A stretch of 26,737 bases of DNA from a virus, in IMG/VR virus record IMGVR_UViG_3300041955_001975, positions 1-26,737 of that record. One strand, 5' to 3'. The translations under genes were made by a program, and so were the position numbers. Below are positions 1 through 25,491 of the stretch, in pieces. Below the pieces are notes generated by a model, which was not told where the DNA came from, did not search any database, and worked only from the letters and a program-made list of their open reading frames with translations. Position 1 is the first letter of the stretch. Every line of letters begins with the position of its first letter.

Positions 1-876
1 ATGGACTTCCACACCTACACCACGATGCGTGACTGGACTCGGCGGGTATCGCCGGAGGACCGCTTCGCCCAGGACATCGGCCAGTTCTACAAGCGGGCGA
101 TGGACGATGCGATCAAGGTACGCTCCGCGCAATTTTTCGCCCAACTCATCAACGAACGGGACTGGGAAAAGGCCCGGCGGCCCTACTACAACCTGTGGCC
201 GTCGATCATCCCGATGCTCACCCGGCTGGACCTGGACCTCGATTCCGAACTGATCCGGCTCCCATTGCCGGCCCTCTGCGTCCGTCTTCCCAAAGACTCG
301 GCGAAGAACCCGCTCAAGTTCGAGTGGAAGGGCGACGACGTTTCCGTCCGCTGCATTATGATGGGCGACATGAACCAGGGCGAAGGTATTTCCGTGCTGA
401 TCGACGTGGGCGAATTGGTGGACGAGATCGGGGTGCCGGTCTACACCTACCGCAACTTCCCTCGCAAGCCCGGCCTGACCGTCCAACAATCGGTGGCCAG
501 TCTTGGAAGGAATGTGTTTGCCGACCTGGGCATCCAAGTCCCGGATTCCCTGGTCATGGACTGCGTGCGGCTGTGCTGCTCCCTTTGCCTGCTGGAAAAC
601 GATCCCGAGATCATTTCTCCCGATGTCCTGGCCGATGACCGGGCCAAGTACGAGGCCACCAGCGACCAGAAGTTCGTGGACAAGGCTCACCGGCGTGGCA
701 AGGTCGGCTGGGATGTGGGGAAACAAATCGAAGTCATCCCGCACTACAGAAGGCCGCACATGACTCTCGTTTGGACCGGGCACGGGCGGGTGACGCCTCG
801 GGTGGTGCCCAGGCGGGGAAGTGTTGTCCATCGGGAGGCGGTGGAGAAGTTGCCGAGCGGGTTTGGGGGAGGGTGA
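1..876 (+). CDS. Hypothetical protein, 291 aa, possibly cut at its 5' end
   Basis: I do not recognise this protein. The reading frame opens with ATG at base 1 of the window, so its ribosome site and possibly part of its N-terminus lie outside. It ends at TGA 874-876. The product looks soluble and mixed alpha/beta, with no signal peptide or membrane segment. The C-terminus is basic and tryptophan/histidine-containing, with the stretches HYRRPH, WTGHGR and RRGSVVHRE. Similar basic C-terminal motifs occur in uncharacterised phage and plasmid proteins, from memory. It converges on the leftward cas9 gene with about 50 bases between the two stops. Codon use looks like that of its neighbours, and the long frame without alternatives supports it being real. 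Function unknown. Confidence 0.75.
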   Translation: MDFHTYTTMRDWTRRVSPEDRFAQDIGQFYKRAMDDAIKVRSAQFFAQLINERDWEKARRPYYNLWPSIIPMLTRLDLDLDSELIRLPLPALCVRLPKDSAKNPLKFEWKGDDVSVRCIMMGDMNQGEGISVLIDVGELVDEIGVPVYTYRNFPRKPGLTVQQSVASLGRNVFADLGIQVPDSLVMDCVRLCCSLCLLENDPEIISPDVLADDRAKYEATSDQKFVDKAHRRGKVGWDVGKQIEVIPHYRRPHMTLVWTGHGRVTPRVVPRRGSVVHREAVEKLPSGFGGG

Positions 877-926: not shown

Positions 927-3884
927 CTAACGCCAGTCGTGTGAACATCCAGTCGTTCGGGTGGCTCCAACTTCTTCCGCGTCGTTGGCTTCGACTGCCT
1001 CGATGTTCGGCTGCTTTGTTTCTTGTGTTTCTTGGGCGGCTGCAACATTGCCGCTGGCATGGTCGCGGGGAACGCTGTTGCTGAGCTGTTTTGCTTGCTT
1101 GTTGACCACGGCCGCGCACAAGGGGGACCGAAAAACATTCTTGATGTCGCGCAGCGCCGCGGGGGTGAGCGAATTCTTGGATAGGTCCAAGTTCTGCACA
1201 TAGAAGCGGCTGCCGTCGCCTCGCTCGATCACGCATCCTTGCGTCACTCGCTCCACTCGCTCGATGCCTTGGGTCCGGCAATAGTCGCGGAAGGCGGCGA
1301 CCCAGCGAGCAGAGAAGTCGGCCTCCTTCTCCTGTGACCCCAGCGGCCGGCCTGTCACCAGAGGGCTGTCATTCGGCACCTTGACCTTGGGCTCCGTCAC
1401 CTGGAAGATCCGGTTGAGCTTAAAGATCACCAGTTTCTCCTCCAGGACTCCCTTTTCGCACTGGTAGCCCACGTAAAGGCATTGCAGTGACGAGTGTGCG
1501 GCCTGGAATCGTCCTAGCCGTTGTGAATCTGTCTTGCGCGGGACGGTAAAATTGCCGCCAGCTTTGGTCAGCGAGATCCCCATCTGTGGGATCTCGTCGT
1601 TCTTGCCAGCCCGGAAGTCATCCAGCAGTCGCCGGCGATTCAAGTCATTCGGGTGCGTGCCCATCCCCTCGGTGTTGATAGAAGCCCGGAGGTGCTCCAG
1701 AAGTCGGACATCGGCGTGTAGCATGTCTGCCAAGAGATACGTGCGGAGACCGCTGGAAGTGACCTTACGGATGGACTGTTCCAGCATCTTCAGGGCCGGC
1801 TTCTTCTTTCGCTTCTTTTGCTTGCCTGACCCCTCTTCCGGCAGGGCCGTTTCCGCTTCCACTTCGGGCGGGGCCGCCGCCTCCTTGGCCACCAGGGCGA
1901 TCAGATCCTTTAGCTCCTTATGGAACTCCGCGGCGGACGCCTGCTTCTGATCTTTCCCGGTGAGTCTGTTGGTGCCCACGGGGTCCAGTTTGCAGGTGGC
2001 CTGGTTCTTCTTGTTCCAGTTGAAGGAACTCAGCCGCACTCGCACATAACCTCCGGGCAGGAGCGTCTCAAAGCCGGGAATGATCTCCAGGATGGCGTCG
2101 GCAGGCACGGCGGGCCGCTTCTCGAAAAGCAGCGGAGATGCCTTGAGCACCCGTTCCCTCCAGCGGCAGGCGTGTGACTGGCTGACCCGTCGCAGGGGAG
2201 CGCTCCAAGCGCCAAAGGAAGGCACTTTGCAAGCCAGGATAGCGGCGTCAATGGCGTGATTGTAGTCGTCGCCGTGGTCCTTGGCGTACTCGGGCAGCAT
2301 GATGGTGCGGTAAAGGGCTGTAAGACGCCCCGACTGGGCTCGAATCGCACAGGGCTTTCCTGTGCGGGTCTCGATGCACTGGGCGAGGTAGCGGGCCAAC
2401 GGCCGCGGGACCCGTTGGCTGTTGCCGATATGGGTCAGATCGGAGAGGATCATGGCCAGGGCCTGCTCGGCGTCCAAGGCCGAGCCCGCGTGACGCATCC
2501 GATTCAAGAGGCCCTTCTTGGTATCGTGATAGGGGTGCCTGGCGCGGAAGCCGTCGATCTTACGCTTGCCCACGTATTTGCCGTAGGCTTCGTAGGCGTC
2601 GTCGTGGATTGTCATGCCGGCCTCGGCCGCCGTGCGGGAACCCTTCCTTGCGTTGCAGGCGGGACAGGCAGGCACGATGTTCAGGTAGGCGTCGAAGGGG
2701 AATCGACTTTGCGGTAGCAGGTGCTCGACCTCCGTCAGCGGCGACCTCTTTCCGCAGTAGGCGCATCGGCCGTCAAACTCTTTGGTAAGCATTTCCCGCC
2801 GGTCCTGGAAGCCGTAGGCAGGTCCCTGCTGGTAGTGCTTGTAGGCTTCCGCCTCGTTGATCGACTTGTCCTGCTTGCGGTCCGGGTGGTAGCCCCGCAA
2901 CACGTCGAAGGCCACGCGCTCCACGACGATTTCGTCGATTTGGCCGACCAGGGGCAGCACGCGGGCTTCAAGGTAGCGCCACAGGTCGGTGAAGATTTTC
3001 TGCTCGATGCGGCCCACGTCGGCCGGCGAGAAGTCGGTCTTGGTCGGAATCGTCCGCCCCGTGACAACATACTGGATGTAGACATTAGAGTGTTCACAGC
3101 AAAAGCGAGTACGTCCCGCGGATTCCCCCTGAAGTATGTCGCGTATGTTCTTCTCGTAGACGGCCTTGTGCTTCTGAAAGGCCGGCTCCGGGACCAGCGT
3201 GTATAGCGCCTTGAACGGCACCCTCTTGGGCGATGCAAGGGCCCTGTCGATCCACGATTCCAGGGCTTGCCAGAGTTGGGCCGGGGACTCCCGCCGGCGG
3301 ATGATGTCGGTGAGCCAGGCGAAAAGTGCCTGCTGCAACCGTTCGCGCTTGGCATTCTTGGCCCGCCGGACATTGCGGTCACAACCTTCCCAGGCGCATT
3401 TTGACGGCTTGCGGTTCTCGACCCGCATAGGGCGGATTTCGCGGCGAAGGTGCCGGCGGCATACGGCCAGAACCCGCTCCTGATCTTCACTGGCGATGAG
3501 ACGCTTGATCTCCTGGGTCAAGGCGGTTAGAAATTCATCCCGGGAGATAGCAAACGGCATCTCTTTCTGGTCCTGCTCCTGGTCTTCCTTGGCAGGGTGG
3601 CCGAAGCCGCGACCGCTACAATAGCGGAGCAACTCGTCAGCCTGCTTAGACGGCAGACCCAGGCTGAGGAAAGCCGCCCCCAGCCTTTTCAGCCGGCGGC
3701 GTTTCGTCTTCCTCGTTCTGCGCGCCCGTCGAGCCAAGGCGCGGCTGTCCAGGGTCGTTTCGATAGGCTTCCGTTGGACTTCCATCGTGCCGAGGAACCG
3801 CGGGATGTTGCCTTCCGCCGTTTGCTCCACGACGCTGAAACCGATGTACTTTTCGCCGTAGTCGATTCCCAAGCAGAAGGTCAT
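927..3884 (-). CDS. cas9: Cas9-family RNA-guided endonuclease with IscB-like zinc HNH (985 aa)
   Basis: RNA-guided DNA nuclease with a split RuvC fold and an inserted HNH domain. RuvC-I is CLGIDYGEKYIGFS with catalytic Asp8. An arginine-rich bridge helix follows (about 47-71, including RRARRTRKTKRRR). Residues about 75-310 form a REC-like region. RuvC-II is IDEIVVERV with Glu322. The HNH domain (about 372-418) has CAYCG, EVEHLLPQS (His388), LNIVPACPACNARKG, thus two CxxC zinc pairs. RuvC-III is NHAIDAAILAC with His543 and Asp546. A lysine-rich linker (about 686-698) leads to a C-terminal WED/PAM-interacting-like part. All catalytic residues are present. The frame opens at GTG 3896 and ATG 3890, but ATG 3884 has GAGG six bases upstream and is preferred. 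No cas1, cas2, cas4 or csn2 lies nearby. The last 60 codons overlap a CRISPR-repeat-like sequence. Subtype is unresolved: compact type II-C-like or early branching (II-D-like). Confidence 0.93.
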   Translation of the reverse strand: MTFCLGIDYGEKYIGFSVVEQTAEGNIPRFLGTMEVQRKPIETTLDSRALARRARRTRKTKRRRLKRLGAAFLSLGLPSKQADELLRYCSGRGFGHPAKEDQEQDQKEMPFAISRDEFLTALTQEIKRLIASEDQERVLAVCRRHLRREIRPMRVENRKPSKCAWEGCDRNVRRAKNAKRERLQQALFAWLTDIIRRRESPAQLWQALESWIDRALASPKRVPFKALYTLVPEPAFQKHKAVYEKNIRDILQGESAGRTRFCCEHSNVYIQYVVTGRTIPTKTDFSPADVGRIEQKIFTDLWRYLEARVLPLVGQIDEIVVERVAFDVLRGYHPDRKQDKSINEAEAYKHYQQGPAYGFQDRREMLTKEFDGRCAYCGKRSPLTEVEHLLPQSRFPFDAYLNIVPACPACNARKGSRTAAEAGMTIHDDAYEAYGKYVGKRKIDGFRARHPYHDTKKGLLNRMRHAGSALDAEQALAMILSDLTHIGNSQRVPRPLARYLAQCIETRTGKPCAIRAQSGRLTALYRTIMLPEYAKDHGDDYNHAIDAAILACKVPSFGAWSAPLRRVSQSHACRWRERVLKASPLLFEKRPAVPADAILEIIPGFETLLPGGYVRVRLSSFNWNKKNQATCKLDPVGTNRLTGKDQKQASAAEFHKELKDLIALVAKEAAAPPEVEAETALPEEGSGKQKKRKKKPALKMLEQSIRKVTSSGLRTYLLADMLHADVRLLEHLRASINTEGMGTHPNDLNRRRLLDDFRAGKNDEIPQMGISLTKAGGNFTVPRKTDSQRLGRFQAAHSSLQCLYVGYQCEKGVLEEKLVIFKLNRIFQVTEPKVKVPNDSPLVTGRPLGSQEKEADFSARWVAAFRDYCRTQGIERVERVTQGCVIERGDGSRFYVQNLDLSKNSLTPAALRDIKNVFRSPLCAAVVNKQAKQLSNSVPRDHASGNVAAAQETQETKQPNIEAVEANDAEEVGATRTTGCSHDWR
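1003..1110 (+). ncRNA. Candidate tracrRNA / anti-repeat A, antisense to the 3' end of cas9
   Basis: Bases 1003-1046 match the CRISPR repeat (read on the + strand) at 30 of 35 positions once one 9-bp insertion is set aside. That insertion is an exact tandem copy of TGTTTCTTG (1017-1034). If the array is read leftward, a + strand RNA from here pairs with the whole crRNA repeat. Three of the five differences then become G-U wobbles (1032, 1033, 1042), whereas on the opposite strand all five are mismatches. Two bases after the anti-repeat a small hairpin, TGCC-GCT-GGCA (1049-1059), could act as a nexus. No clear promoter and no T-run terminator are visible, so the end is arbitrary. It could instead be an ectopic or decayed CRISPR repeat trapped in coding sequence. 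Confidence 0.42.
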
Positions 3885-3904
3885 GGTCATCCTCACTCAA
3901 AAGG

Positions 3905-4041
3905 TCGTTTCAGGACTCACCGAATAAGCCAAGGGAGTTGTGCAGAGCAGGGGTCTGTCCCGACCACTGGTGCGTCCCCGGGCAACGGCTCTTTGTAGTC
4001 AACCGGAAACAAAGCATTCGTTCGTTGTACGGGTCATGTGC
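3905..4041 (-). ncRNA. Candidate tracrRNA (anti-repeat B) in the leader between array and cas9
   Basis: The minus strand of 3992-4026 is complementary to the leftward crRNA repeat. Six pairs, UUGUAG with CUACAA (3993-3998), form a lower stem. A short internal loop follows, then CCGG and AAACAAAGCA (4003-4016) form an upper stem of 14 pairs with one bulged G, followed by partial pairing. This lower stem, bulge and upper stem layout is that of known tracrRNA:crRNA duplexes. The promoter-like motif at 4048-4086 would start transcription about 15 bases before it. Downstream the strand can fold: ACC-AGT-GGT, GGTC with GACC, GGGG with CCCC, and TGC-TCT-GCA within 3941-3980. No T-run terminator precedes cas9, so this RNA would be the 5' leader of cas9 mRNA, processed or not. 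The 3' end is a guess. Confidence 0.45.
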
Positions 4042-4047
4042 CCCTGC

Positions 4048-4086
4048 CCATACTAAGAGTTGCAAAATCTGGAAAAGTGGTTTTGG
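4048..4086 (-). promoter_or_regulatory. Recurrent promoter-like motif, copy 1 (upstream of cas9)
   Basis: Read leftward it contains AAAACCACTTTT, then AGATTTTGCAACTCTT, then AGTATGG. Three other places in the window (7881-7920, 12561-12600, 24458-24495) carry the same blocks at identical spacing. It lies between the CRISPR array and cas9, about 160 bases before the cas9 ATG and just before anti-repeat B. The end with RTATGG would serve as a -10-like element and the AACCAGTTTT block as an upstream element or operator. Assignment as a promoter is inference from position and repetition. Confidence 0.55.
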
Positions 4087-4163
4087 CGGAGGGAGATTTT
4101 CTGGGAGGTTCCGCCGCTAGCTCGATGCAAGGACTCATACGGCAGCCTGTTGCGGCGGACAGA

Positions 4164-4451
4164 TTGTTCGGGTGCTTTGTTCCCCGGGCGGCTACAACAA
4201 GCATTTGTTTCCGGCCGCAAACTGGAATACTGTTCGGGTGCTTTGTTTCCCGGGCGGCTACAACTCTACGCGATCAAGCAGAAATTGTTCGGCTGCTTTG
4301 TTTTCCGAGCGGCTACAACTGCTGGATCGTTCGGATCTGTGACTGGTGCGTTGTTCGGGTGCTTTGTTTCCCAGGCGGCTACAACAAAGTGACGAGAGGA
4401 ACAGGCAAGAGTAGTATTGTTCGGGTGCTTTGTCTCCCGGGCGACTGTAAC
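4164..4451 (-). CRISPR. CRISPR array: five 35-bp degenerate repeats, four spacers
   Basis: Repeats lie at 4164-4198, 4230-4264, 4285-4319, 4351-4385 and 4417-4451. Spacers are 31, 20, 31 and 31 bp (4199-4229, 4265-4284, 4320-4350, 4386-4416). Read leftward the repeat starts GTTGTAGCCGCCCGGG, continues AAACAAAGC and ends ACCCGAACAA. The GTTGTAG start and a following T in four of five copies (ACAAT end) match the termini of many type II-C repeats, which is why I prefer leftward transcription. No two repeats are identical: they differ from consensus by 1, 1, 3, 1 and 4 bases. The rightmost copy is decayed at its outer end. Rightward reading cannot be fully excluded. No leader is recognised. Transcripts from the leftward operon beginning near 7,875 could read through it. 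Confidence 0.93.
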
Positions 4452-5980: not shown

Positions 5981-5999
5981 GGTGCAGCTCCTTGGTCAG

Positions 6000-6068
6000 T
6001 ACAACCAGCGGGAATCGAACCCGCATTGCCGGCTGGAAGCCGGTGTCCTGCCGTTAGACGATGGCTGT
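6000..6068 (-). tRNA. tRNA-Gly (anticodon TCC)
   Basis: Read leftward from 6068, a full cloverleaf can be drawn. The acceptor stem is ACAGCCA with TGGTTGT (seven pairs, one G-U). The D arm is GTCT...GGAC with loop AACGGCA. The anticodon loop is CTTCCAG with anticodon TCC. The T arm is GCGGG-TTCGATT-CCCGC, and the discriminator is A. It resembles tRNA-Gly(TCC) genes. It is compact, 69 bases in all: the anticodon stem has only four good pairs (ACCGG opposite CCGGC leaves an outer A-C), base 26 or one pair is missing, and the variable loop is three to four bases. The 3' CCA is not encoded. It sits between two leftward genes and should be cut out of their mRNA. Confidence 0.85.
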
Positions 6069-8228: not shown

Positions 8229-8765
8229 TCAGATTCTCGGGTTTACGTCCAGCACCTTCCCAAAACGAGTGAAAGATGCCCTGAAGGAGGGCGCTCTTCG
8301 TCCCCAGTACACGAAGCAACAGGACATGGGTGCTCCCTTCTCGACCACCTTGCCGGCGAGCAGGAACTTCAGCCGAGGCACCCGCAAGAAGCAAATACTC
8401 CTTGCTCTTAGAAACACGTTGTCCTGCCAATGGCGCGTGTTGGTTGCCACGGGGATCAGGGCGATGATTTCCGACTCATGTTGCTCGTAGGCATTGCTGC
8501 ACCTCAACAGCCAGTCCTTGATGCTGGTCCCGTTTGCATTCCTGCCGTAGGGCGGGTTGACGTAGATCGTGGGGAAGTTCCAGGTCTCTCGCAGTCCGTC
8601 GTGTTCCGGCAGCTTGTACTCCACTTTCGCTCCGACGAGGGCGTAGTCATTGGAGCACGGGTCAAGAGCAATCCAGCCACCGAAGAAATCCCGGACGACC
8701 TGGACATATTCCGCGGGCGTATTCCAATCCGTCGTCAGTGAGGTGACGTGTCTTCCGGCGGTCAT
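8229..8765 (-). CDS. Phage Dam-type DNA N6-adenine methyltransferase, 178 aa
   Basis: S-adenosylmethionine-dependent adenine methylase of the small phage family (DNA_N-6-adenine-methyltransferase type). It opens with TTDWNTPAEYVQVV, the usual N-terminus of this family. LDPCSN (34-39) is the cofactor-side motif, and IYVNPPYG (about 67-74) is the catalytic NPPY motif. LIPVATNTRHWQDNVF and the GAPMSCCFVYWG strand are also typical. The length is normal for the family. Such enzymes protect phage DNA from host restriction. The start lacks a good Shine-Dalgarno; a 15-codon ORF (8762-8809) links the previous gene's stop to this ATG by GTGA and ATGA overlaps. No partner restriction enzyme is seen. Confidence 0.9.
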   Translation of the reverse strand: MTAGRHVTSLTTDWNTPAEYVQVVRDFFGGWIALDPCSNDYALVGAKVEYKLPEHDGLRETWNFPTIYVNPPYGRNANGTSIKDWLLRCSNAYEQHESEIIALIPVATNTRHWQDNVFLRARSICFLRVPRLKFLLAGKVVEKGAPMSCCFVYWGRRAPSFRASFTRFGKVLDVNPRI

Positions 8766-12857: not shown

Positions 12858-13133
12858 TACCGGCACCCTTGCGGATCGTCCGGGTTGTCGGCATCGTGCC
12901 GGCCCGCGACCGAGAAAACGCACCACGAAGAAGAGGCTACCCAAGGACGTTGAAGAGAAGACGAAGACCGTTCAGTTCGGCGGGCAGGGTTGGGGATCAA
13001 GCGGGGTAGGCCGCAAGTTCACGTTCCTCTCTCGGCTCTTGACGCCACCTATGGGGTGGGTGCGCTGAGGGGCATCCCAGCGGAAACAGTTTTATTCAGC
13101 GGTTTCTCGCGCCGTTTAGAATGGGGGGGGATA
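12858..13133. other. Divergent intergenic region, no gene seen
   Basis: This separates the leftward block from the rightward WG-repeat genes. Frames across it are open on the + strand but have no ribosome site and poor composition. A G-run (13123-13130) and a TAGAAT near 13117 are present, the latter without a good -35. I see no terminator and no repeat here. Confidence 0.4.
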
Positions 13134-13162
13134 TTGCTTAGCACCCCGCCGTTGGCTAGAAT
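13134..13162 (+). promoter_or_regulatory. Sigma70-like promoter of the first WG-repeat gene
   Basis: TTGCTT (13134-13139), a 17-base spacer and TAGAAT (13157-13162) form a near-consensus promoter. The predicted start near 13,169 leaves a leader of about 45 bases with AGAGGG eight bases before ATG 13215. It resembles a bacterial housekeeping promoter and is unlike the recurrent motif of the leftward genes. Confidence 0.6.
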
Positions 13163-13214
13163 TGCGGTTATTCCAGGGCTTCGATGGCGTGAACCTGAGC
13201 AGAGGGTGACTGAT

Positions 13215-14873
13215 ATGGGTGTGCGTCTCAGTGTCTACTCGGGCGTTCTTGTGCCCCTTCAAAACGTGCTGGAACTGATTCCCCCCAAGCACTATTCCCA
13301 AATGCTCAAGCAAGCCAGGAATGCCTGCGAGACAGACGAGGAATTTCGGAAGGCGTTCGGCGAATTGGATAGGAGTGAGACACTTACCCTCGACGACTTG
13401 AAGGACCGTCTGTACGAGACTGCCAAGAGTCTTTTGGCCCGCGATGAGGCATCGTCATCCTGCATTGAAGAACAGGACCATCAAACGCTGTTCTCGTTAC
13501 TATTCGAGGGTCTGCCGCACAGGTTTGGCTTCGTAGACAACTTGGGGCAATGGGTAGCGGGACCACCTTTTGACGAGCTAGGTGGATTCCATGAGGGACT
13601 TTCCTCTGCAAGGAAGAACGGCCTGTGGGGTGTGATTGACAAGCAAGGGCAGTGGGTGATTGACCCGCACTTTGAGGACATCGGTGAGTTTCGGAGGGGG
13701 CTGGCAGCCGCAAAGAGCCATGAAGGGTGGGGCTTTATCGACGCCAAAGGCAAGTGGGTCATCGAGCCAATGTTCGACGACGCCAGGACTTTTGACGAAG
13801 GCCCAAACGGCGTGAACTCCAATGCGTTGTGGGGTTTCATTGATGCGCAAGGGAAATGGTTGATTGAGCCGCAATTCTCCTTTATTGGCCGCTGGTCGGC
13901 CATCGGCTATGAGGGATTCGTGGACGGCCTTGCTGCTGCGTCGCAAGATGGCCTCGTCGGCTATATCGACGAGGAAGGACGATGGGTTATCGAGCCCCAG
14001 TTCGAGAACAGCGATGGGTTCGTCATGGGGCTTGCCCGTGCAAGAAAAGGAAAATCCTGGGGCATTATTGACAAACAGGGCAAGTGGGTCGTCGAACCGC
14101 AATTTGCCGACTTATCTCGCCCTGATGCGACAGGTGTGTATCGGGCAAAGTCTGATAATCTATGGGGACTTCTGGACCGACATGGCCAATGGATCATTTC
14201 TCCAACATTTCAATGCATCGGCCAGTTTGAGAAGGGAGTGTGGTTCGCCGCTGTTGATGATAAATACGGTACAATGACCGCAGAGGGGAAATGGCTCATT
14301 ACTCCACGTTTTGAACGGCTGGGACCGTTGTGTGATGGGCTCTCTGCTGCCAAACACGAGCGCTATGGCTTTGTTGACAAGGCAGGCAAATGGGTGATTG
14401 AACCCCAATTCGAGGAAGTCGAAGAGTTTCGTGAGGGTTATGCGCTTGCAAAGAGCGAGGGGTTATGGGGTGTAATTGATCGTTCAGGCAAATGGGTGGT
14501 CGCTCCGAAATTCGACAACACATACTGCGGCTCGTGGACCTTCGAGGACGGTGTGGCAGTGTTCAAACACGAAGGAGTGTGGGCAGGCATCAATCCAAGG
14601 GGCGAATGGGTCATTGAACCCGCGTGCAGGTACGTAGCTTTGTCAAAAGAAGAAGAGCCCGCTGGCGGACATGTGTTACCGAAAATCAAGGAGATCGTGG
14701 CTTTCCACTGGTATAATGTGACGGATGGATTGCGCTACGATCTCGGTGAGCCGTTTGTCGTGTTCGACAAGTCCGATTGTGTGGTCGAGCGGCTGACCGA
14801 ACCAGGGGAAGTTCTTGCGAGGGCCCTCGGCGTGGAAGAATTGCATTCAACACACTATGCACATTATGGTTGA
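13215..14873 (+). CDS. WG-repeat protein, 552 aa (copy 1)
   Basis: Eleven WG (KWG-type) repeats of about 33-40 residues run from about residue 95 to 460, of the form WGVIDKQGQWVIDPHF. Each forms a small beta unit, and together they build a repeat scaffold for protein binding. Before them is a helical N-terminal region (MGVRLSVYSGVLVPLQNVLE ...) with a degenerate EF-hand-like loop (ELDRSETLTLDDLKD, about 50-64), two residues shorter than a true loop. After them is a short tail. No membrane segment or signal peptide is seen. I start at ATG 13215 because AGAGGG lies eight bases upstream and the same ATG and leader are conserved in the second copy. It is on the opposite strand from its neighbours with its own promoter, and looks like cargo. 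Confidence 0.85.
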   Translation: MGVRLSVYSGVLVPLQNVLELIPPKHYSQMLKQARNACETDEEFRKAFGELDRSETLTLDDLKDRLYETAKSLLARDEASSSCIEEQDHQTLFSLLFEGLPHRFGFVDNLGQWVAGPPFDELGGFHEGLSSARKNGLWGVIDKQGQWVIDPHFEDIGEFRRGLAAAKSHEGWGFIDAKGKWVIEPMFDDARTFDEGPNGVNSNALWGFIDAQGKWLIEPQFSFIGRWSAIGYEGFVDGLAAASQDGLVGYIDEEGRWVIEPQFENSDGFVMGLARARKGKSWGIIDKQGKWVVEPQFADLSRPDATGVYRAKSDNLWGLLDRHGQWIISPTFQCIGQFEKGVWFAAVDDKYGTMTAEGKWLITPRFERLGPLCDGLSAAKHERYGFVDKAGKWVIEPQFEEVEEFREGYALAKSEGLWGVIDRSGKWVVAPKFDNTYCGSWTFEDGVAVFKHEGVWAGINPRGEWVIEPACRYVALSKEEEPAGGHVLPKIKEIVAFHWYNVTDGLRYDLGEPFVVFDKSDCVVERLTEPGEVLARALGVEELHSTHYAHYG

Positions 14874-15069
14874 ACGGACGGCCAATAATCGTCGCCACTT
14901 CCCAAACACACCAGTGGCAGATAAGGGCGCGGACACACCAACACCACTCATTGTGCGGTCGCGCCAACAAGAGCGAGGAGCCTCCTAACAGAACATCAGT
15001 TGCCAGCCGCACGGAGCAATGATGGCCCAGAAGGTGGTGGTATCGACAAGTCGAATTCATCCTGCGCTT
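14874..15069. other. Spacer between the two WG-repeat genes
   Basis: No gene is seen. It holds no clear terminator and no obvious promoter for the second copy, which may be co-transcribed from the promoter at 13,134. From 15070 the sequence repeats the leader of copy 1. Confidence 0.4.
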
Positions 15070-15118
15070 GGTTATCCCAGGGCTCCGATGGCGTCAACCT
15101 GAACAGAGGGCGACTAAT

Positions 15119-16771
15119 ATGGGTATGGATGTCAGTGTCCACTCGGGCGTTCTTGTGCCACTCCAAAGCGTACTTCGCTTCATTCCTGCGAAGCGCTATT
15201 CCCAAATGCTCAAGCAAGCCAGGAATGCCTGCGAGACAGACGAGGCATTTCGGAAGGCGTTCGGTGAATTGGATAGGAGTGGCACAATTACCTTCGACGA
15301 GTTGAAGGACCGTCTGTACAAGACAGCCAAGAGTCTTTTGGCCACCGATTCGGAAACGCTTCAGTGGAGTGAAATCGACGAATACGAACATCAAACGCTG
15401 TTCTCGTTACTATTGGAGAGTCTGCCGCACAGGTTTGGCTTCCTCGACAACTCGCGGCAATGGGTAGCGGGACCACCTTTTGACGAGCTAGGTGGATTCC
15501 ATGAGGGACTGTGCTCTGCAAAGACGAACGGGCTGTGGGGTGTGATTGACAAGCAAGGACGTTGGGTGATTGACCCGCACTTCGAGGACATCGGTGACTT
15601 TCACAGGGGGCTGGCAATCGCATCGAGCCATGATTTGTGCGGCTTTATCGACGCCAAAGGCAGGTGGGTCATCGAGCCAATGTTCGACGGGGCCGAGACC
15701 TTCATCGAAGGCCCAAACTTTGCGAGTTCCGATGGATTGTGGGGTTTCATTGATGCGCAAGGGAAATGGTTGATCGAGCCGCGATTCAAGCCCATCTGCG
15801 TCGGTTTCGTGGACGGCCTTGCTGCCGTGAGGCAAGACCAACTCGTCGGCTATATCGACGAGGAAGGACGATGGGTTATCGAGCCCCAGTTCGTGGAAAG
15901 CTCTCACTTCGTCATGGGGCTTGCCCTAGCAGAGGCGGACGGAGGATCATGGGGCATTATTGACAAACAGGGCAAGTGGGTTGTCGAACCGCAGTTCGCC
16001 GACTTATCTCTGTCTGGTGCGCCAGGCGTATATTGGGCAAAGTCTGATAATCTATGGGGACTTCTGGACCGACACGGCCAATGGCTCATTTCTCCTACAC
16101 TTCAATTCATCGAAGGGCCGTTCACAAACGGGGTCGCGGTCGCCATTGTTGATGGTAAGTACGGTGCAATAACCGTAGAGGGGAAATGGCTCATTCCCCC
16201 GCACTTTGAATGGTTGGGACCGTTGTGTGATGGGCTCTTGTGTGCCGCCGAGAACGATCGCGTTGGCTTTGTTGACAAGATGGGCGAATGGGTGATTGAA
16301 CCTCAATTCGAGCAAGTCGAACCGTTTCGTGAGGGTCATGCTCTTGCAAAGAGCGAGGCGTTATGGGGTGTAATTGATCGTTCAGGCAAATGGGTGGTCG
16401 CTCCGAAATTCGACGACCCAGAATACGGCTGGACGTTCGAGGACGGTGTGGCAGTGTTCAAGCACGAAGGAGTGTGGGCAGGCATCAATCCAAGGGGCGA
16501 ATGGGTCATTGAACCCGCGTGTAAGTACGTAACCTTGTCGGAAGATGAAGAGCCCGCTGGGGGACATGTCTTACCGAAAATCAAGATGATTCTGGCTTTC
16601 CACCAGCCTAGATTGACGGGTACATGGGATTTCAAAGACGGTGAGCCGTATGTTGTATTCGACAAGTCCGAGTTCGTCGTCGAGCGGCTGACTGAAAACG
16701 CGGAGGCTCTCGCCAAGGTTATCGGTGAGGAAAACCTACATTGCAACCACTGGACGAATTTTAGCAACTGA
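15119..16771 (+). CDS. WG-repeat protein, 550 aa (copy 2)
   Basis: Paralogue of the preceding gene with the same layout: helical N-terminus (MGMDVSVHSGVLVPLQSVLR), an EF-hand-like helix-loop-helix (ELDRSGTITFDELKDRLYK) and eleven WG repeats such as WGVIDKQGRWVIDPHF and WGFIDAQGKWLIEP. The loop is closer to a true EF hand than in copy 1 but still lacks two residues. One repeat has lost its leading W (CGFIDAKGRWVI) and others begin VG or YG. ATG 15119 has AGAGGG eight bases upstream. The C-terminal tails of the two copies are the most different part, suggesting different partners. Function unknown. Confidence 0.85.
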   Translation: MGMDVSVHSGVLVPLQSVLRFIPAKRYSQMLKQARNACETDEAFRKAFGELDRSGTITFDELKDRLYKTAKSLLATDSETLQWSEIDEYEHQTLFSLLLESLPHRFGFLDNSRQWVAGPPFDELGGFHEGLCSAKTNGLWGVIDKQGRWVIDPHFEDIGDFHRGLAIASSHDLCGFIDAKGRWVIEPMFDGAETFIEGPNFASSDGLWGFIDAQGKWLIEPRFKPICVGFVDGLAAVRQDQLVGYIDEEGRWVIEPQFVESSHFVMGLALAEADGGSWGIIDKQGKWVVEPQFADLSLSGAPGVYWAKSDNLWGLLDRHGQWLISPTLQFIEGPFTNGVAVAIVDGKYGAITVEGKWLIPPHFEWLGPLCDGLLCAAENDRVGFVDKMGEWVIEPQFEQVEPFREGHALAKSEALWGVIDRSGKWVVAPKFDDPEYGWTFEDGVAVFKHEGVWAGINPRGEWVIEPACKYVTLSEDEEPAGGHVLPKIKMILAFHQPRLTGTWDFKDGEPYVVFDKSEFVVERLTENAEALAKVIGEENLHCNHWTNFSN

Positions 16772-17095: not shown

Positions 17096-17851
17096 TCATG
17101 CCCCCTCCCAGATGGCTCGGTGGACGTAGCCGCTGCGGATCAGCCCGTGTTCCGCCGCGATCTTTTCGCAGTAGCCCCTGTCGATCTCGAAAAGGGAGCA
17201 GGGCAGGCCGAGACGTTTACACACTCTCAGCGTCGTCCCCGTGCCCGCGAAGGGATCGACCACGACGCCGCCGGGCGGTGTCGTCAGCTTCAGGCACCGT
17301 TCGACTAGCCCCTCGTTCAGTTGGGTCGGGTGCCACGGGCGGCGCTGCTTGCTGTTGCCTGTGACCCGCGTGAAGTCGAAAACGTCGCCCGGCACCCGCC
17401 CGCGGGGATCAGCACGCTTGTCGCCGTTCTCCTGCCGCCAACTCGGCACGCGGATGGCGTCCGGGTAGAGCGGGGCGTCGGACCAGCGAAGTCGCAAGAG
17501 CGGCCGATGGTTATTGCCCAGGTCGTGGTGGCTATGCTGGCCGAAAGTGAACGTCTGGACGCAGGGCTTGGCCTCGATCGCGCTGCCGTGCTGGCCCTCG
17601 ATCTCGGTCACGATGCGGCCTACTTGGAAGGTCCATTTCGCGTTGTAGGAGAGCCATACCGTCTTTGCCCTCGTGATGAAGCAGTTGAGCCAGCCGCGGA
17701 GCAAGTCGATGTAATCGCTCTCGGTGCGACGATCCTTGTAGGTGTCGTAGCCCAGGCCGATGTTGTCCGGCGGATCGGCGAACAATGTGTCCACCCGATC
17801 TGCCCCGGGCATCCACTCCATGCAGTCAGCATTGACAAGCGAGTATTTCAT
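17096..17851 (-). CDS. Beta-class DNA methyltransferase (N4-cytosine or N6-adenine), 251 aa
   Basis: SAM-dependent DNA methylase with beta-class motif order. The catalytic motif comes first (LFADPPDN, 24-30, a DPPD variant of DPPY). The target-recognition region is in the middle (about 100-165), and the SAM-binding motif is near the end (VVVDPFAGTGTTLRV, about 196-210), preceded by RRPWHPTQLNEGLVERC, which is typical. The last motif residue being Asp rather than Tyr/Phe/Trp is odd and could alter activity or base specificity. The start at ATG 17851 overlaps the upstream methylase gene's stop as ATGA; the frame further upstream is shadow. No restriction partner is present, so it is probably a solitary protective methylase. 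Confidence 0.85.
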   Translation of the reverse strand: MKYSLVNADCMEWMPGADRVDTLFADPPDNIGLGYDTYKDRRTESDYIDLLRGWLNCFITRAKTVWLSYNAKWTFQVGRIVTEIEGQHGSAIEAKPCVQTFTFGQHSHHDLGNNHRPLLRLRWSDAPLYPDAIRVPSWRQENGDKRADPRGRVPGDVFDFTRVTGNSKQRRPWHPTQLNEGLVERCLKLTTPPGGVVVDPFAGTGTTLRVCKRLGLPCSLFEIDRGYCEKIAAEHGLIRSGYVHRAIWEGA

Positions 17852-18507
17852 GTTGGGTCCAGTGCGGTCTCCGGCAGGAAGTAGTGGGAGCCGATGCCCT
17901 TGACGTTGAAGATCAGGATCTCGGCGTGAAACTCCACGCCGGGGAACGTGTCCAGCGGAAGCGACACGATGCTGGTCAGCTTGGCACCGCAATCCCGCAG
18001 CCATCGCCAGCGGGTGCTCTTGCGCCGTTGATTGAGACGCATCCCCATCGGTGCGAACATGACCGTTGGCGTCCCGTACCCGAACAGCTTGAACGTGTGC
18101 TCCAGGAAGACCTCCGGGTACAGCCTCCGGCCGCTGGCCCCGTTGAAGGGCGGATTGCAGAGCACGAGATCCGGGCGCGCCATGTCCGTTTGATCTTCAT
18201 ACCGGCCGTGACAAAACTCGTTGCAGTAGGCACTTCCTCGGTCGTCAATGTCGCAACCGTAGATGTAGTGGCCGCTGCTGACCCAAGGGGCCGTCAATCG
18301 GCCGGTGCCAATGGCCGGGTCCAGGACAAGATGGAACCAGTGCCGGCAGCGACCGCCCCCGGCACACGGCCCGCGAGCGGCTCGCAAGGGTCGGGCATTG
18401 CACAGCGTCGTGTAAAGAAACTGTGCAACGCTGCTCGGCGTGTAGATGTCGCTCCGCTTCGGGTTGGCGGTGTAGTCGTTTCGTTTGACGGTCAGCGGGC
18501 TCACCAT
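17848..18507 (-). CDS. N6-adenine-type DNA methyltransferase, 219 aa
   Basis: SAM-dependent methylase with the cofactor motif first (HLVLDPAIGTGRL, about 59-71), an acidic loop (YGCDID, 83-88) and the catalytic motif NPPF (118-121, in LVLCNPPFNGA). The order and the NPPF motif are those of N6-adenine enzymes. The N-terminus (NPKRSDIYTPSSVAQFLY) recalls the entry segment of HsdM-like methylases. It is short and lacks a recognisable target-recognition domain. It starts at ATG 18507 overlapping the upstream stop as TAATG, with a weak ribosome site. It is coupled to the beta-class methylase downstream by ATGA, so the two may act on the same DNA. Confidence 0.82.
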   Translation of the reverse strand: MVSPLTVKRNDYTANPKRSDIYTPSSVAQFLYTTLCNARPLRAARGPCAGGGRCRHWFHLVLDPAIGTGRLTAPWVSSGHYIYGCDIDDRGSAYCNEFCHGRYEDQTDMARPDLVLCNPPFNGASGRRLYPEVFLEHTFKLFGYGTPTVMFAPMGMRLNQRRKSTRWRWLRDCGAKLTSIVSLPLDTFPGVEFHAEILIFNVKGIGSHYFLPETALDPT

Positions 18508-20086: not shown

Positions 20087-21088
20087 TCACCATTTCTTCG
20101 TGCGGACGCATTCCGCAAAAAAGTCATCCTTCACCGATCCATCGGACATGAGGCCGCCGGCCATGTTGTCGAGCACCTCACAGCGGGACCGACTTTCCTC
20201 GGGGGTCATGTCGGTAAAGACATGGCCGCTGGTAATGGCGGTCCAGCAGCGGGCAACCCGCTTCACGAGAGCTTCCTGATGGGCCTTGCTCACGCGACCG
20301 CGGTGGTTTGCCACGCGAAGCAGCGGCCTCGCGTCGGGGCCCAGGTACTTGGCGACGATCTCGTCGATCATCAGGACGACGTTCTCATCGCCCACGGCCT
20401 CGCCCAGCAGCCAGCCGTAGAGGCAGAGCTGATCGGCGTACTCGTTGTTGCACCCCTCCATGTAGCCGGAATTGATTAACAGGCCGTGGTAGTTCATCCC
20501 CAGGAAGTTGGCGTGCTCCTTGCAATGGCTGCGGCTCGGCTTGTCGGACAAGTAGCCATCGCGGCAGAGCATATAGCCCTTGGACGGGCTCGCCCCGTAC
20601 TTGGAGCAGTAGCCGTGGACTTTCCAGTCGAGGATGACGTGGATCGGTCCGTCGCCCAGGTCGAGCACGAAGCGGCAGTCCGGTTTGCCCAAGAAGGGTG
20701 CGCCGCCGATGAGGCCCTCGACCTTGAACTCGAAGCGTGGCGGCTCGATGCTTCTCTGCAAGAGGACAAACAACTCCTCGTAGGCCCCGGTCAGCTTGTA
20801 GCACTTCCAGATGTGCTTGCCGGCCTTCAGGGCGAAGTCGCGGCACTGCGGCTCGACCTGGCTCTCGAAGATCGCGCCGAACTCGAATTGCGGATTGCTG
20901 CTCACGCCGAACAGTTGCGAGTGCAGGGCGGCCTTGACGAAGGCGTCGAAGGCGGACCCCACAGCCATCGGCGGCTCCTGGGGCAGGCGCGGGGCGGCCT
21001 TGTCCGCCAGGTAGCGCATGTAGAACTCCTCGACATCCTTCTCGAAGAGGCTGAGGGACGAGTAGCTGAGGGATCTTGGTGTCTTCAT
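20087..21088 (-). CDS. PD-(D/E)XK (RecB/Cas4-fold) nuclease, 333 aa
   Basis: Predicted phage exonuclease or recombination nuclease. It opens with LSYSSLSLFEKDVEEFYMRY, the usual N-terminus of PDDEXK_1 phage proteins. GSAFDAFVKAAL (44-55) follows, then GKPDCRF (Asp137) and VILDWKVHGY (Asp154, Lys156) as the metal-binding D...DxK core, and ADQLCLYGWLLG (Gln220, Tyr224), the QxxxY motif. All core residues are present. It lacks the four-Cys iron-sulphur arrangement of Cas4, though a His/Cys cluster (SHCKEH) is present at about 187-192, so I do not call it a CRISPR gene. Start ATG 21088 lies three bases after the previous stop. Confidence 0.85.
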   Translation of the reverse strand: MKTPRSLSYSSLSLFEKDVEEFYMRYLADKAAPRLPQEPPMAVGSAFDAFVKAALHSQLFGVSSNPQFEFGAIFESQVEPQCRDFALKAGKHIWKCYKLTGAYEELFVLLQRSIEPPRFEFKVEGLIGGAPFLGKPDCRFVLDLGDGPIHVILDWKVHGYCSKYGASPSKGYMLCRDGYLSDKPSRSHCKEHANFLGMNYHGLLINSGYMEGCNNEYADQLCLYGWLLGEAVGDENVVLMIDEIVAKYLGPDARPLLRVANHRGRVSKAHQEALVKRVARCWTAITSGHVFTDMTPEESRSRCEVLDNMAGGLMSDGSVKDDFFAECVRTKKW

Positions 21089-23326: not shown

Positions 23327-23973
23327 CTCCTCCCTCGCTTCGCGGTTCGCTTGGCGGTCAGGCGATTTCTCCGGCCGATGTACCGGCTTGCAGACTCGAC
23401 GCAAGGTTTGCCCATCCAGTTGAAGAAGTACCAGCGGTTGAGCCGGTCGATCACCGGGTCGTGGTCGATGTGCCGCAGGTAGGTCTTCACTTCGTCCCAC
23501 GTCGAGAAGATCATCTCGAAGGGGAGCGTGCCGAAGAGCCAATCCGGGCAGTTCTCGATGCCCTGAGCCACGCGAACGAGGATGGGCTTCTTTTCCCGGT
23601 TGGCCAGGAACAACTCTTCGTAGGTGCCCGTTGCGTGAACTTGCAGGTCGATGTTCACGATGAGGAAGTCGGCCACGTCCACCATCCGCAGATCGACCGG
23701 GCGAATCTGCTTCATCTGGTTGCGGACGAACTCAAAGTCGCCGGATCGCTTCGCCTTGTGGCGCAGTTCGCGGTTCTCCAGGTCTTCGACGCCGATGTCG
23801 ATGGGCTTTCGGCACGGGTCGAGCCAGAGGATGTTCAGGTCGCTCAACGAGTCGATCAGGTCTTGACGCCAGCCGATGCCGCCGTCAATCACGCGGTCCA
23901 TTGCCCCGCACAGGTAGCCCCGGTTCAGGGCCAGCCGGTTCATGGCGGGCTTTCTCACGGCCTGTTTCTTCAC
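23323..23973 (-). CDS. Nucleoside 2-deoxyribosyltransferase-like protein, 216 aa
   Basis: Nucleoside deoxyribosyltransferase fold: RGYLCGAMDRV (18-28) corresponds to the nucleotide-binding YLAGPM-type start. RMVDVADFLIVNID (96-109) holds the substrate-binding Asp. GTYEELFLANREKKPILV (116-133) holds the catalytic Glu region. Such enzymes swap bases on deoxyribose or hydrolyse deoxynucleoside monophosphates and are found in large phages. A basic C-terminal tail (RRNRLTAKRTAKRGRR) is unusual. I start at GTG 23973, which overlaps the deoC stop as GTGA and has AGGAA upstream; ATG 23943 is an alternative. Being next to deoC, it likely belongs to a deoxynucleoside salvage pathway. Confidence 0.8.
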   Translation of the reverse strand: MKKQAVRKPAMNRLALNRGYLCGAMDRVIDGGIGWRQDLIDSLSDLNILWLDPCRKPIDIGVEDLENRELRHKAKRSGDFEFVRNQMKQIRPVDLRMVDVADFLIVNIDLQVHATGTYEELFLANREKKPILVRVAQGIENCPDWLFGTLPFEMIFSTWDEVKTYLRHIDHDPVIDRLNRWYFFNWMGKPCVESASRYIGRRNRLTAKRTAKRGRR

Positions 23974-24665
23974 GGGAGCAATTCCTGGAACTTGGACGAG
24001 CCGATGCGGGTGCAACCCATGTCCAGGTAACGGACTGCATCAGCGTAAGTGTTGATCCCGCCGCTGGCCTTGACTCCGCACCAATAATCGCCCCTTACGG
24101 CGTCAAGCATGATCCGCACCACGTCTGGGGTTGCTCCGTGCGGGGCGACGCCGGTCGAGGTCTTGATGTAATCCACGCCGCAATCAGCGCACAGGCGGGA
24201 GGCGTCCCTTATCTGGGACGGCGTGTAATAGCAAGTCTCCAGGATGGCTTTGACGATCGCCCCTCGCGGGCGGGCCTCGGCGACAATCTGGGTCAGCTCG
24301 GTCCTTATTGGGCCCGGATCGCCATCCAGGAGCCGGCCGTAGTTGACCACTACGTCGATCTCCTTCGCCCCGGAACCCATTGCCTCCACGGCCTCCACCG
24401 TCTTGGTAAACGGAGTGGTGTTGCCGTGCGGGAAACCGACAACAGCACACACTCGGTCCGTATAAAGAGTTGCAAAACAGACAAAACTGGTTGGGACGCA
24501 GACGGATTTTATTCCGTAGCGGTTCACCATCTCGCAGGCTGCGCGCACCTCGGCCGCCGTTGCGGTGGGCTTCAACACTGCCAGGTCCAGGGAGTCGGCA
24601 ATGCGCTTTACAGCGGTTGCGCGGTCGTCGGGTGTGGCTTCAGGCTCGATCTGATTGTTGTTCAT
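23970..24665 (-). CDS. deoC: Deoxyribose-phosphate aldolase, 231 aa
   Basis: Class I aldolase that splits 2-deoxyribose-5-phosphate into acetaldehyde and glyceraldehyde-3-phosphate. Key residues are present: Asp104 in EIDVVVNYG, the Schiff-base Lys168 in DYIKTSTG, and Lys199 in GVKASGGINTYADAV, with ILETCYY and the phosphate-site GCTRIGSS. The segment after SVCVPTSF (about 60-71) is roughly five residues shorter than in typical family members. It is encoded by the fourth copy of the recurrent promoter-like motif. Start ATG 24665 overlaps the methylase stop as ATGA. It feeds salvage together with the deoxyribosyltransferase downstream. Confidence 0.9.
   Translation of the reverse strand: MNNNQIEPEATPDDRATAVKRIADSLDLAVLKPTATAAEVRAACEMVNRYGIKSVCVPTSFVCFATLYTDRVCAVVGFPHGNTTPFTKTVEAVEAMGSGAKEIDVVVNYGRLLDGDPGPIRTELTQIVAEARPRGAIVKAILETCYYTPSQIRDASRLCADCGVDYIKTSTGVAPHGATPDVVRIMLDAVRGDYWCGVKASGGINTYADAVRYLDMGCTRIGSSKFQELLP
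24458..24495 (-). promoter_or_regulatory. Recurrent promoter-like motif, copy 4 (inside deoC)
   Basis: Read leftward: CAACCAGTTTTG, then TGTTTTGCAACTCTT, then TATACGG, with the same spacing as the other copies. It is the only copy inside a coding region, near codons 60-72 of deoC, and encodes FVCFATLY. If active it would transcribe the 3' part of deoC and the genes downstream. Confidence 0.42.
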
Positions 24666-25486
24666 TGCTGTTGGCAGTGGTGTTGGTTGACCTCAAAGCC
24701 GAGAAACTGGTGCCCTAGCATCCGAGCTGCCCGTCCTGTTGTCCCGCTGCCCATGAATGGATCGAAGACGATTCCAGACTTCATGCCCGATGCTTTGATG
24801 CACTGGAGCGGGAGGTCAATTGGAAAGGTGGAACAGTGGCCAGTCCGGTTCGGTCGCTGAAGCAGCTTCCAAACCGACCCGAGGGGAGGCTTGACCTGGA
24901 ACAGGTGGCGTTCGCTCTTGGCGAAGATGTAGATACCCTCGTGTTTACGATGCGGTCGGCGACAGCGGCCCTCTGGCAACGGCCGTGACTTTTCCCAGAT
25001 CACTTCGCCACGGAAAAGGAAGCCAAGATCACATAGGCCGGACACCACGCGGTACGGGATTGCCAGCAGGTTGCCATATTGCAACCACGGGGTGTCCCTG
25101 CGAATACAAGCCCTCCGGCGGCCACGCTTCTTCGTGTAGGCCGAGTTGGTCGCGGGTAGACCTTTGCCGTCTTTGCCCAAGGAACTGTAGCGATAGTCGC
25201 CGGCCTGCCAGTTGATGGGCGTGTTGTAAGCGTCTCCCAGGTTCAGCCACAGTGTCGCACTTGGCTTGAGGCAGCGCATCACCTCCGCAAGGACCGCGAC
25301 CAAGTTGCGTATGTAGTCCCGAGGATCGGGCTCTGAGCCCAGGTCGGCTGAATCGCGCTGGCCCCAGTAGGGTGGGGAAGTTACCGCAACATCGAAGGTG
25401 TCTGACGGGATGCTGCGCATCCCTGCCAGGCAGTCACAGCAGTGCGTCCGGTCCATTTGCCAGTGTCCGATCTTGCCACGGCTCAT
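24662..25486 (-). CDS. Beta-class DNA methyltransferase with TSPPYW motif, 274 aa
   Basis: DNA methylase of the N4-cytosine/N6-adenine beta group. The catalytic motif VAVTSPPYWGQRD (34-46) comes first and the SAM motif GIVFDPFMGSGTTGRAARMLG comes near the C-terminus. The TSPPYW variant and GQRD are typical of phage and restriction-system N4/N6 enzymes. The middle holds a basic recognition region (KKRGRRRACIRRD; RCRRPHRKHEG). The N-terminus has GHWQMDRTHCCDCLAGMRSI, the usual 'L..GD....L..L' entry with extra Cys. Start ATG 25486 lies after the RNA ligase stop; a GGAGG lies rather far upstream. The stop overlaps deoC as ATGA. No restriction enzyme is nearby. Confidence 0.88.
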   Translation of the reverse strand: MSRGKIGHWQMDRTHCCDCLAGMRSIPSDTFDVAVTSPPYWGQRDSADLGSEPDPRDYIRNLVAVLAEVMRCLKPSATLWLNLGDAYNTPINWQAGDYRYSSLGKDGKGLPATNSAYTKKRGRRRACIRRDTPWLQYGNLLAIPYRVVSGLCDLGFLFRGEVIWEKSRPLPEGRCRRPHRKHEGIYIFAKSERHLFQVKPPLGSVWKLLQRPNRTGHCSTFPIDLPLQCIKASGMKSGIVFDPFMGSGTTGRAARMLGHQFLGFEVNQHHCQQQ

Positions 25487-25491
25487 GGGTG

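What the first reader, a model, noticed from the sequence alone, without database searches (positions are those of the whole stretch)
927..4451. Stand-alone Cas9-type locus (effector, array, guide-RNA candidates) without adaptation genes in a phage-like genome
Seen: an intact Cas9-family gene with all RuvC and HNH catalytic residues next to a five-repeat array. No cas1, cas2, cas4 or csn2 occurs in the 26.7 kb, and the surroundings are phage-like. Known: most type II systems carry cas1 and cas2; phage-borne CRISPR systems often lack them and target competing elements. Inference: a virus-carried minimal type II (II-C or II-D-like) interference system.
Basis: partly seen in the sequence, partly recalled or inferred. 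Interest (0 to 1): 0.85.

Follow-up and report, generated by a model that had tools for sequence, protein, structure and literature searches.

The report
Phage-carried stand-alone Cas9 locus
A bacterial virus carries its own small CRISPR-Cas9 weapon (one intact but unusual Cas9 gene, a five-repeat guide array and a likely helper RNA, without the genes for learning new targets); phage-borne systems of this kind are known, but this Cas9 belongs to a deep lineage that no curated Cas9 model tested here recognises at its cut-off.

Summary
The window is the left end of a 113,838-bp IMG/VR phage contig with terminase, portal, major head and tape-measure genes. At 927-3896(-) it encodes a 989-aa Cas9-type nuclease with all RuvC and HNH catalytic residues. 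Beside it is a five-repeat array (35-nt repeats; spacers of 31, 20, 31 and 31 nt). The contig has no detectable cas1, cas2 or cas4 and no second CRISPR array.

The protein is not II-C. It forms a 100/100-supported clade with a chromosomal Cas9 from a Desulfobacterota-phylum genome (33% identity over the full length), which also has an array and no cas1 nearby. That clade lies on the II-D/IscB side of the tree. II-D membership is neither shown nor rejected (AU p=0.15); the II-D model score (107 bits) is far below its cut-off (375). A likely tracrRNA lies between array and cas9. A second repeat copy lies in a non-conserved C-terminal tail of cas9.

Most likely this is an interference-only, tracrRNA-dependent DNA nuclease aimed at other mobile DNA. 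No spacer target was found; spacer 3 resembles a scaffold-like gene of the phage itself (24/31), which hints at related phages. Phage Cas9 systems lacking adaptation are published, so this is a new variant of a known kind.

The parts
927..3896 (-). cas9-type effector gene, 989 aa; homology to its closest relative ends at aa 933 (nt 1098)
930..1097 (-). extra C-terminal tail (aa 934-989) absent from the relative, with GC3 0.54 against 0.78 in the body: probably read-through into formerly noncoding DNA (inference)
1004..1046 (.). orphan repeat-like element (candidate A) inside the tail: repeat copy with a 9-nt tandem duplication; same sense as the array repeats on the - strand, an anti-repeat if read on the + strand
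   Evidence: 0 of 1000 shuffles reach it
3915..4025 (-). favoured tracrRNA candidate (B): anti-repeat core 3993-4016, followed by an AAAGAGC...GCTCT tail; between array and cas9, same strand. Ends are approximate
4164..4451 (-). CRISPR array, five 35-nt repeats (GTTGTAGCCGCCCGGGAAACAAAGCACCCGAACAA on the - strand); strand inferred from repeat start and anti-repeat B. The 4417-4451 copy is degenerate at its GTTGTAG end
4199..4229 (-). spacer 1 (31 nt)
4265..4284 (-). spacer 2 (20 nt)
4320..4350 (-). spacer 3 (31 nt); 24/31 match to a scaffold-like gene of the same phage at contig 80953-80983
4386..4416 (-). spacer 4 (31 nt)
1..876 (+). convergent gene, 291 aa, no Pfam match; lies between cas9 and the contig's left end

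Best explanation
The locus is a phage-encoded, interference-only type II CRISPR module. Shown: a Cas9-type gene with complete RuvC and HNH active sites, a five-repeat array on a phage contig, and no detectable adaptation genes. Inferred: the array is transcribed on the - strand; the tracrRNA (candidate B, between array and cas9) pairs with each repeat; host RNase III or another RNase matures the guides; and the Cas9-guide complex makes double-strand breaks in DNA matching the spacers. The beneficiary is the phage, which uses it against other mobile DNA in the same cell, probably related phages. Spacers would change by recombination or by borrowed host Cas1-Cas2, not by its own machinery. The effector belongs to a separate Cas9 lineage near II-D and IscB, shared with a chromosome of a Desulfobacterota-phylum bacterium.
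For: Catalytic residues intact. RRXRR (PF14239) and HNH domains above cut-off. Best solved relatives are active II-D Cas9d nucleases. Relative L034/L048: 33% identity over aa 4-933, 12-repeat array 0.2 kb downstream, no cas1-like ORF apparent in the 20-kb stretch. Clade support 100/100. Anti-repeat B: 0 of 1000 shuffles; its tail resembles the relative's cas9-array intergenic region, 2 of 2000 shuffles under one scoring scheme. Cas1/2/4 absent. Phage hallmarks. GC of cas9 0.611, contig 0.617. Spacer 3 similarity to a phage structural-region gene: 0 of 300 shuffles. Precedent: phage type II systems, nearly all lacking acquisition genes, with short arrays and some spacers against other phages' structural genes (PMC7162821).
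Against: No exact spacer target was found. The tracrRNA assignment is statistical: the B-tail similarity fails under a stricter scoring scheme (335 of 2000), neither tail folds better than shuffles, and Rfam finds nothing. The structure prediction was too poor to use (pLDDT 42). The contig end lies 926 bp from the cas9 stop, so adaptation genes beyond it cannot be excluded. Only one close relative was found.
Confidence: 0.68

Rival explanations
1. Same module, but the functional tracrRNA is candidate A, transcribed on the + strand, antisense to the cas9 3' end, with its tail running into cas9.
For: Far stronger pairing with the repeat: -55.5 against -29.5 kcal/mol, z -7.3. Anti-repeats in the II-D loci L008 and L010 also suggest a tracrRNA at the cas9 3' end on the opposite strand.
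Against: The sequence after the anti-repeat has no similarity to the tracr regions of L008, L010 or L048. Near-identity over the whole repeat plus a 9-nt tandem duplication fits a stranded repeat copy as well.
Confidence: 0.25
2. Anti-CRISPR by mimicry: the phage Cas9 soaks up host crRNAs rather than using its own array.
For: A phage-encoded type II-C Cas9 with a tracrRNA has been proposed to work this way (PMC10910872).
Against: That protein has a dead RuvC and no array; here RuvC and HNH are intact and an array is adjacent.
Confidence: 0.06
3. The module attacks or regulates the host (chromosome or its defences) rather than competing phages.
For: Some phage-encoded CRISPR loci carry spacers against bacteria (PMC7162821). 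No spacer matched phage or plasmid collections.
Against: Host unknown, and chromosomes could not be scanned with the spacers. Spacer 3 resembles a gene in the phage head region.
Confidence: 0.2
4. Decaying or passively carried locus: a host-derived cas9 and orphan array that do nothing for the phage, or an assembly chimera.
For: Locus at the contig end; read-through tail on cas9; imperfect repeats and one 20-nt spacer.
Against: Full-length ORF with all catalytic residues; GC of cas9 equals the contig's (0.611 against 0.617); flanked on both sides by genes of matching composition.
Confidence: 0.12

Closest known systems
Type II-D CRISPR (Cas9d, e.g. Cas9d-MG34-1, PDB 8zq9/9auf; PMC9755519, PMC11706934)
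   Same: Nearest characterised sequences (E=3e-23); shared bridge helix, zinc-ribbon-type cysteines and zinc HNH; array and likely tracrRNA; often without adaptation genes
   Different: About 25% identity over aa 3-557 only; much longer C-terminal region (989 against 700-762 aa in the small Cas9d compared here); 107 bits against a cut-off of 375 on the II-D model; carried by a phage
Type II systems in huge phages (Al-Shayeb 2020, PMC7162821)
   Same: Cas9 system in a phage, catalytic residues kept, no Cas1/2/4, short array
   Different: Contig of 114 kb rather than over 200 kb; those Cas9 sequences could not be compared directly, but tblastn against the annotated phage collection found only HNH-region hits
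Phage RuvC-dead Cas9 'biomimicry' (PMC10910872)
   Same: Phage-encoded Cas9 homolog with a likely tracrRNA
   Different: RuvC intact and an own array here
IscB/OMEGA
   Same: HNH region is close to IscB in sequence (32-44% over short stretches); shared RRXRR N-terminus (PF14239)
   Different: Long region between bridge helix and RuvC-II that IscB lacks; CRISPR array and anti-repeat; lies in its own clade
L034/L048 Cas9 (genome G613, same phylum as the Desulfobacterales MAG of L009)
   Same: 33% identity over the full length, adjacent array, no adaptation genes nearby, possibly similar intergenic RNA region
   Different: On a bacterial chromosome; different repeat; array downstream of cas9

Membership tests
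Type II CRISPR-Cas (broad) | single effector with split RuvC and HNH, all catalytic residues | tested here: met
Type II CRISPR-Cas (broad) | CRISPR array adjacent to the effector | tested here: met
Type II CRISPR-Cas (broad) | tracrRNA with anti-repeat | tested here: inconclusive
   two significant anti-repeat candidates, but no expression data; tail homology is borderline
Type II CRISPR-Cas (broad) | cas1/cas2 in the locus (usual but not universal) | tested here: not met
   absent from the 113.8-kb contig; contig end is close, and nearly all phage CRISPR systems lack them (PMC7162821)
Subtype II-C | Cas9 groups with II-C type Cas9s | tested here: not met
   separated from all 14 other type II Cas9s, 100/100; TIGR01865 51 bits < 100
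Subtype II-D | curated Cas9d model NF049971 above cut-off | tested here: not met
   107 bits, cut-off 375; its relative L034 scores 106 and the II-D protein L008 514, but L009 in the II-D clade also fails at 290
Subtype II-D | monophyletic with Cas9d proteins | tested here: inconclusive
   not in the best tree, not rejected: AU p=0.15 with all II-D, 0.065 with small II-D only
Subtype II-D | zinc-ribbon motifs in the REC region and near RuvC-II (PMC9755519) | tested here: inconclusive
   C167, C172, C266 and H269 are conserved with Cas9d, but metal binding was not modelled
IscB/OMEGA | curated IscB model NF040563 above cut-off, no CRISPR array | tested here: not met
   73 bits, cut-off 175; array present
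Phage RuvC-dead Cas9 mimic | inactivated RuvC, no array | tested here: not met
   RuvC residues intact, array present

The most novel reading that the evidence does not exclude
The phage protein and its relative from a Desulfobacterota-phylum chromosome represent an undescribed type II lineage of subtype rank, branching near IscB and II-D, that lives without adaptation genes on chromosomes and phages; in the phage version a stranded repeat in the 3' end of the cas9 mRNA pairs with the tracrRNA and adjusts the Cas9 level.
Probability: 0.15. Interest if true: 0.75.

Novelty: new variant of a known kind. Interest (0 to 1): 0.5.

Why it matters
The curated Cas9 and IscB models tested here do not recognise this lineage at their cut-offs, so annotation pipelines would probably miss it. 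It adds an intact, phage-carried effector on the II-D/IscB side of the Cas9 tree, where few lineages are characterised. It also gives a concrete locus (effector, array, two RNA candidates) with which to test how a phage uses a Cas9 it cannot visibly retrain.

Tried and rejected
II-C placement: rejected by the tree. Scans of IMG/VR for relatives of the protein, alone or as alignments: only a small HNH protein (L007), otherwise nothing. tblastn against phages and plasmids: HNH-region and IscB hits only. Spacers: blastn against phages and plasmids, and exact 20-mers of all four in IMG/VR, no match. The scaffold-like protein has no relative in the phage collection, so spacer 3 could not be tested on a homologous gene. 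Spacers of the relative's array show no convincing match to this phage. Structure prediction: pLDDT 42, not used. Promoter/terminator scan: no more than chance. Rfam: no guide RNA family. Self-targeting: best self matches of the 31-nt spacers have at least 7 mismatches. The + strand reading of the array was considered: A would then be an anti-repeat in the cas9 mRNA (-48.2 kcal/mol). I prefer the - strand because anti-repeat B keeps its pairing next to the guide only that way and because the repeat starts GTT on that strand.

Full report
What is there. The window is bases 1-26,737 of a 113,838-bp virus record. Fetching the rest and scanning PHROGs shows a tailed phage: terminase large subunit, portal, tape measure, DNA polymerase, helicase and two serine recombinases, and a major head protein with a scaffold-like gene beside it ('scaffold-like' is my reading of its position and coiled-coil-like sequence, PHROGs gives no function). 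Near the left end, 927-3896(-), lies a 989-aa ORF, with a five-repeat array upstream of it at 4164-4451. Repeats are 35 nt and spacers 31, 20, 31 and 31 nt. Cas1, Cas2 and Cas4 profiles give nothing on the contig, while the controls ring. No second CRISPR array was seen on the rest of the contig; the repeats found there are protein-coding (WG and collagen-like) or short. A convergent gene lies at 1-876, and the contig has no terminal repeats, so what lies beyond base 1 is unknown.

The effector. Pfam finds RRXRR and HNH above cut-off. NCBI's Cas9d, IscB and general Cas9 models all hit below their cut-offs (107/375, 73/175 and 51/100 bits). The best solved structures are Cas9d proteins (E=3e-23). 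Alignment keeps D12, E326, H392, N406, N415, H547 and D550. A search of 395 genomes of one phylum gave L034, a 954-aa protein 33% identical over aa 4-933 (E=3e-134). It sits on a contig with ordinary chromosomal genes, followed by a 12-repeat array and without cas1 nearby; a cas1 exists on another contig of that genome. Further searches in the same phylum and order found no more members. A 24-protein tree joins phage and L034 at 100/100 and puts them with II-D and IscB, away from 14 other type II Cas9s. Branching inside that side is unresolved, and AU tests reject neither II-D nor IscB affinity. Long branches and the distance between the proteins limit this tree.

Guide RNA candidates. Two elements outside the array match the repeat. 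B (anti-repeat 3993-4016, - strand) lies between array and cas9 and exceeds 1000 shuffles of that region. A (1004-1046) lies in the cas9 3' end and exceeds 1000 shuffles too. B's downstream sequence resembles the cas9-array intergenic region of L048 (AAAGAGC...CGCAC), but the significance depends on scoring: 2, 12 or 335 of 2000 shuffles. A pairs much more strongly with the repeat (-55.5 against -29.5 kcal/mol), but its flank resembles none of the other tracr regions. A lies in the tail aa 934-989, which L034 lacks and whose GC3 (0.54 against 0.78) does not look coding. I read A as most likely a stranded repeat copy and B as the tracrRNA, with moderate confidence. The array strand is inferred, not observed.

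Targets. Spacers match nothing in phage or plasmid collections, and their 20-mers match nothing in IMG/VR. Spacer 3 matches the phage's own scaffold-like gene at 24 of 31 positions, above all 300 shuffled spacers; the other three are within or near chance (23, 13 and 287 of 300). In that reading frame the spacer keeps the HQxQIxxIQ residues, as expected of a homologous gene in another phage (my reading of the sequence). This is one hint out of four spacers.

How it most likely works. By analogy with Cas9d (PMC9755519, PMC11706934), tracrRNA and crRNA would guide double-strand DNA cleavage. Without cas1/cas2 on the contig the phage cannot visibly add spacers itself. Huge-phage type II systems of this sort are described: catalytic residues mostly kept, acquisition genes almost always missing, median six repeats, some spacers against other phages' structural genes (PMC7162821). 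The proposed mimicry mechanism (PMC10910872) does not fit an intact RuvC with its own array.

Verdict. Real and correctly located. The kind (phage-borne, interference-only type II) is known. The effector lineage is unusual and its subtype is open. New variant of a known kind, interest 0.5.

Noticed in passing
window 12990-14873(+) and 15068-16771(+): Two neighbouring paralogous WG-repeat proteins (PF14903, nine stretches each) on the strand opposite to most likely genes around them.
   Followed up: partly
window 8229-8765(-), 17096-18004(-), 24662-25771(-); contig 28994-29752(-): Several DNA methyltransferase genes in one phage.
   Followed up: partly
window 25492-26592(-): RNA ligase (PF09414, E=5e-22) with an N-terminal OB-fold domain PF21189.
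   Followed up: partly
window 23970-24665(-): DeoC/LacD-type aldolase in a phage.
   Followed up: partly
window 20087-21088(-): 333-aa protein that by eye looks like a PD-(D/E)XK/Cas4-like exonuclease, but no Pfam, PHROG or PADLOC match and no Cas4 profile hit.
   Followed up: partly
window 5999-6068(-): tRNA-Gly (TCC).
   Followed up: no
contig 83237-86314(-): Collagen-like GATGPTG repeat proteins, probable tail fibres, with a 105-nt period.
   Followed up: no
contig 112011-113838(-): Two adjacent serine recombinase/integrase-like genes at the right contig end.
   Followed up: no
L048:7914-11830 (genome G613): Chromosomal Cas9 of the same clade with a 12-repeat array and no adaptation genes nearby; the genome has a cas1 on another contig whose context was not examined.
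   Followed up: partly
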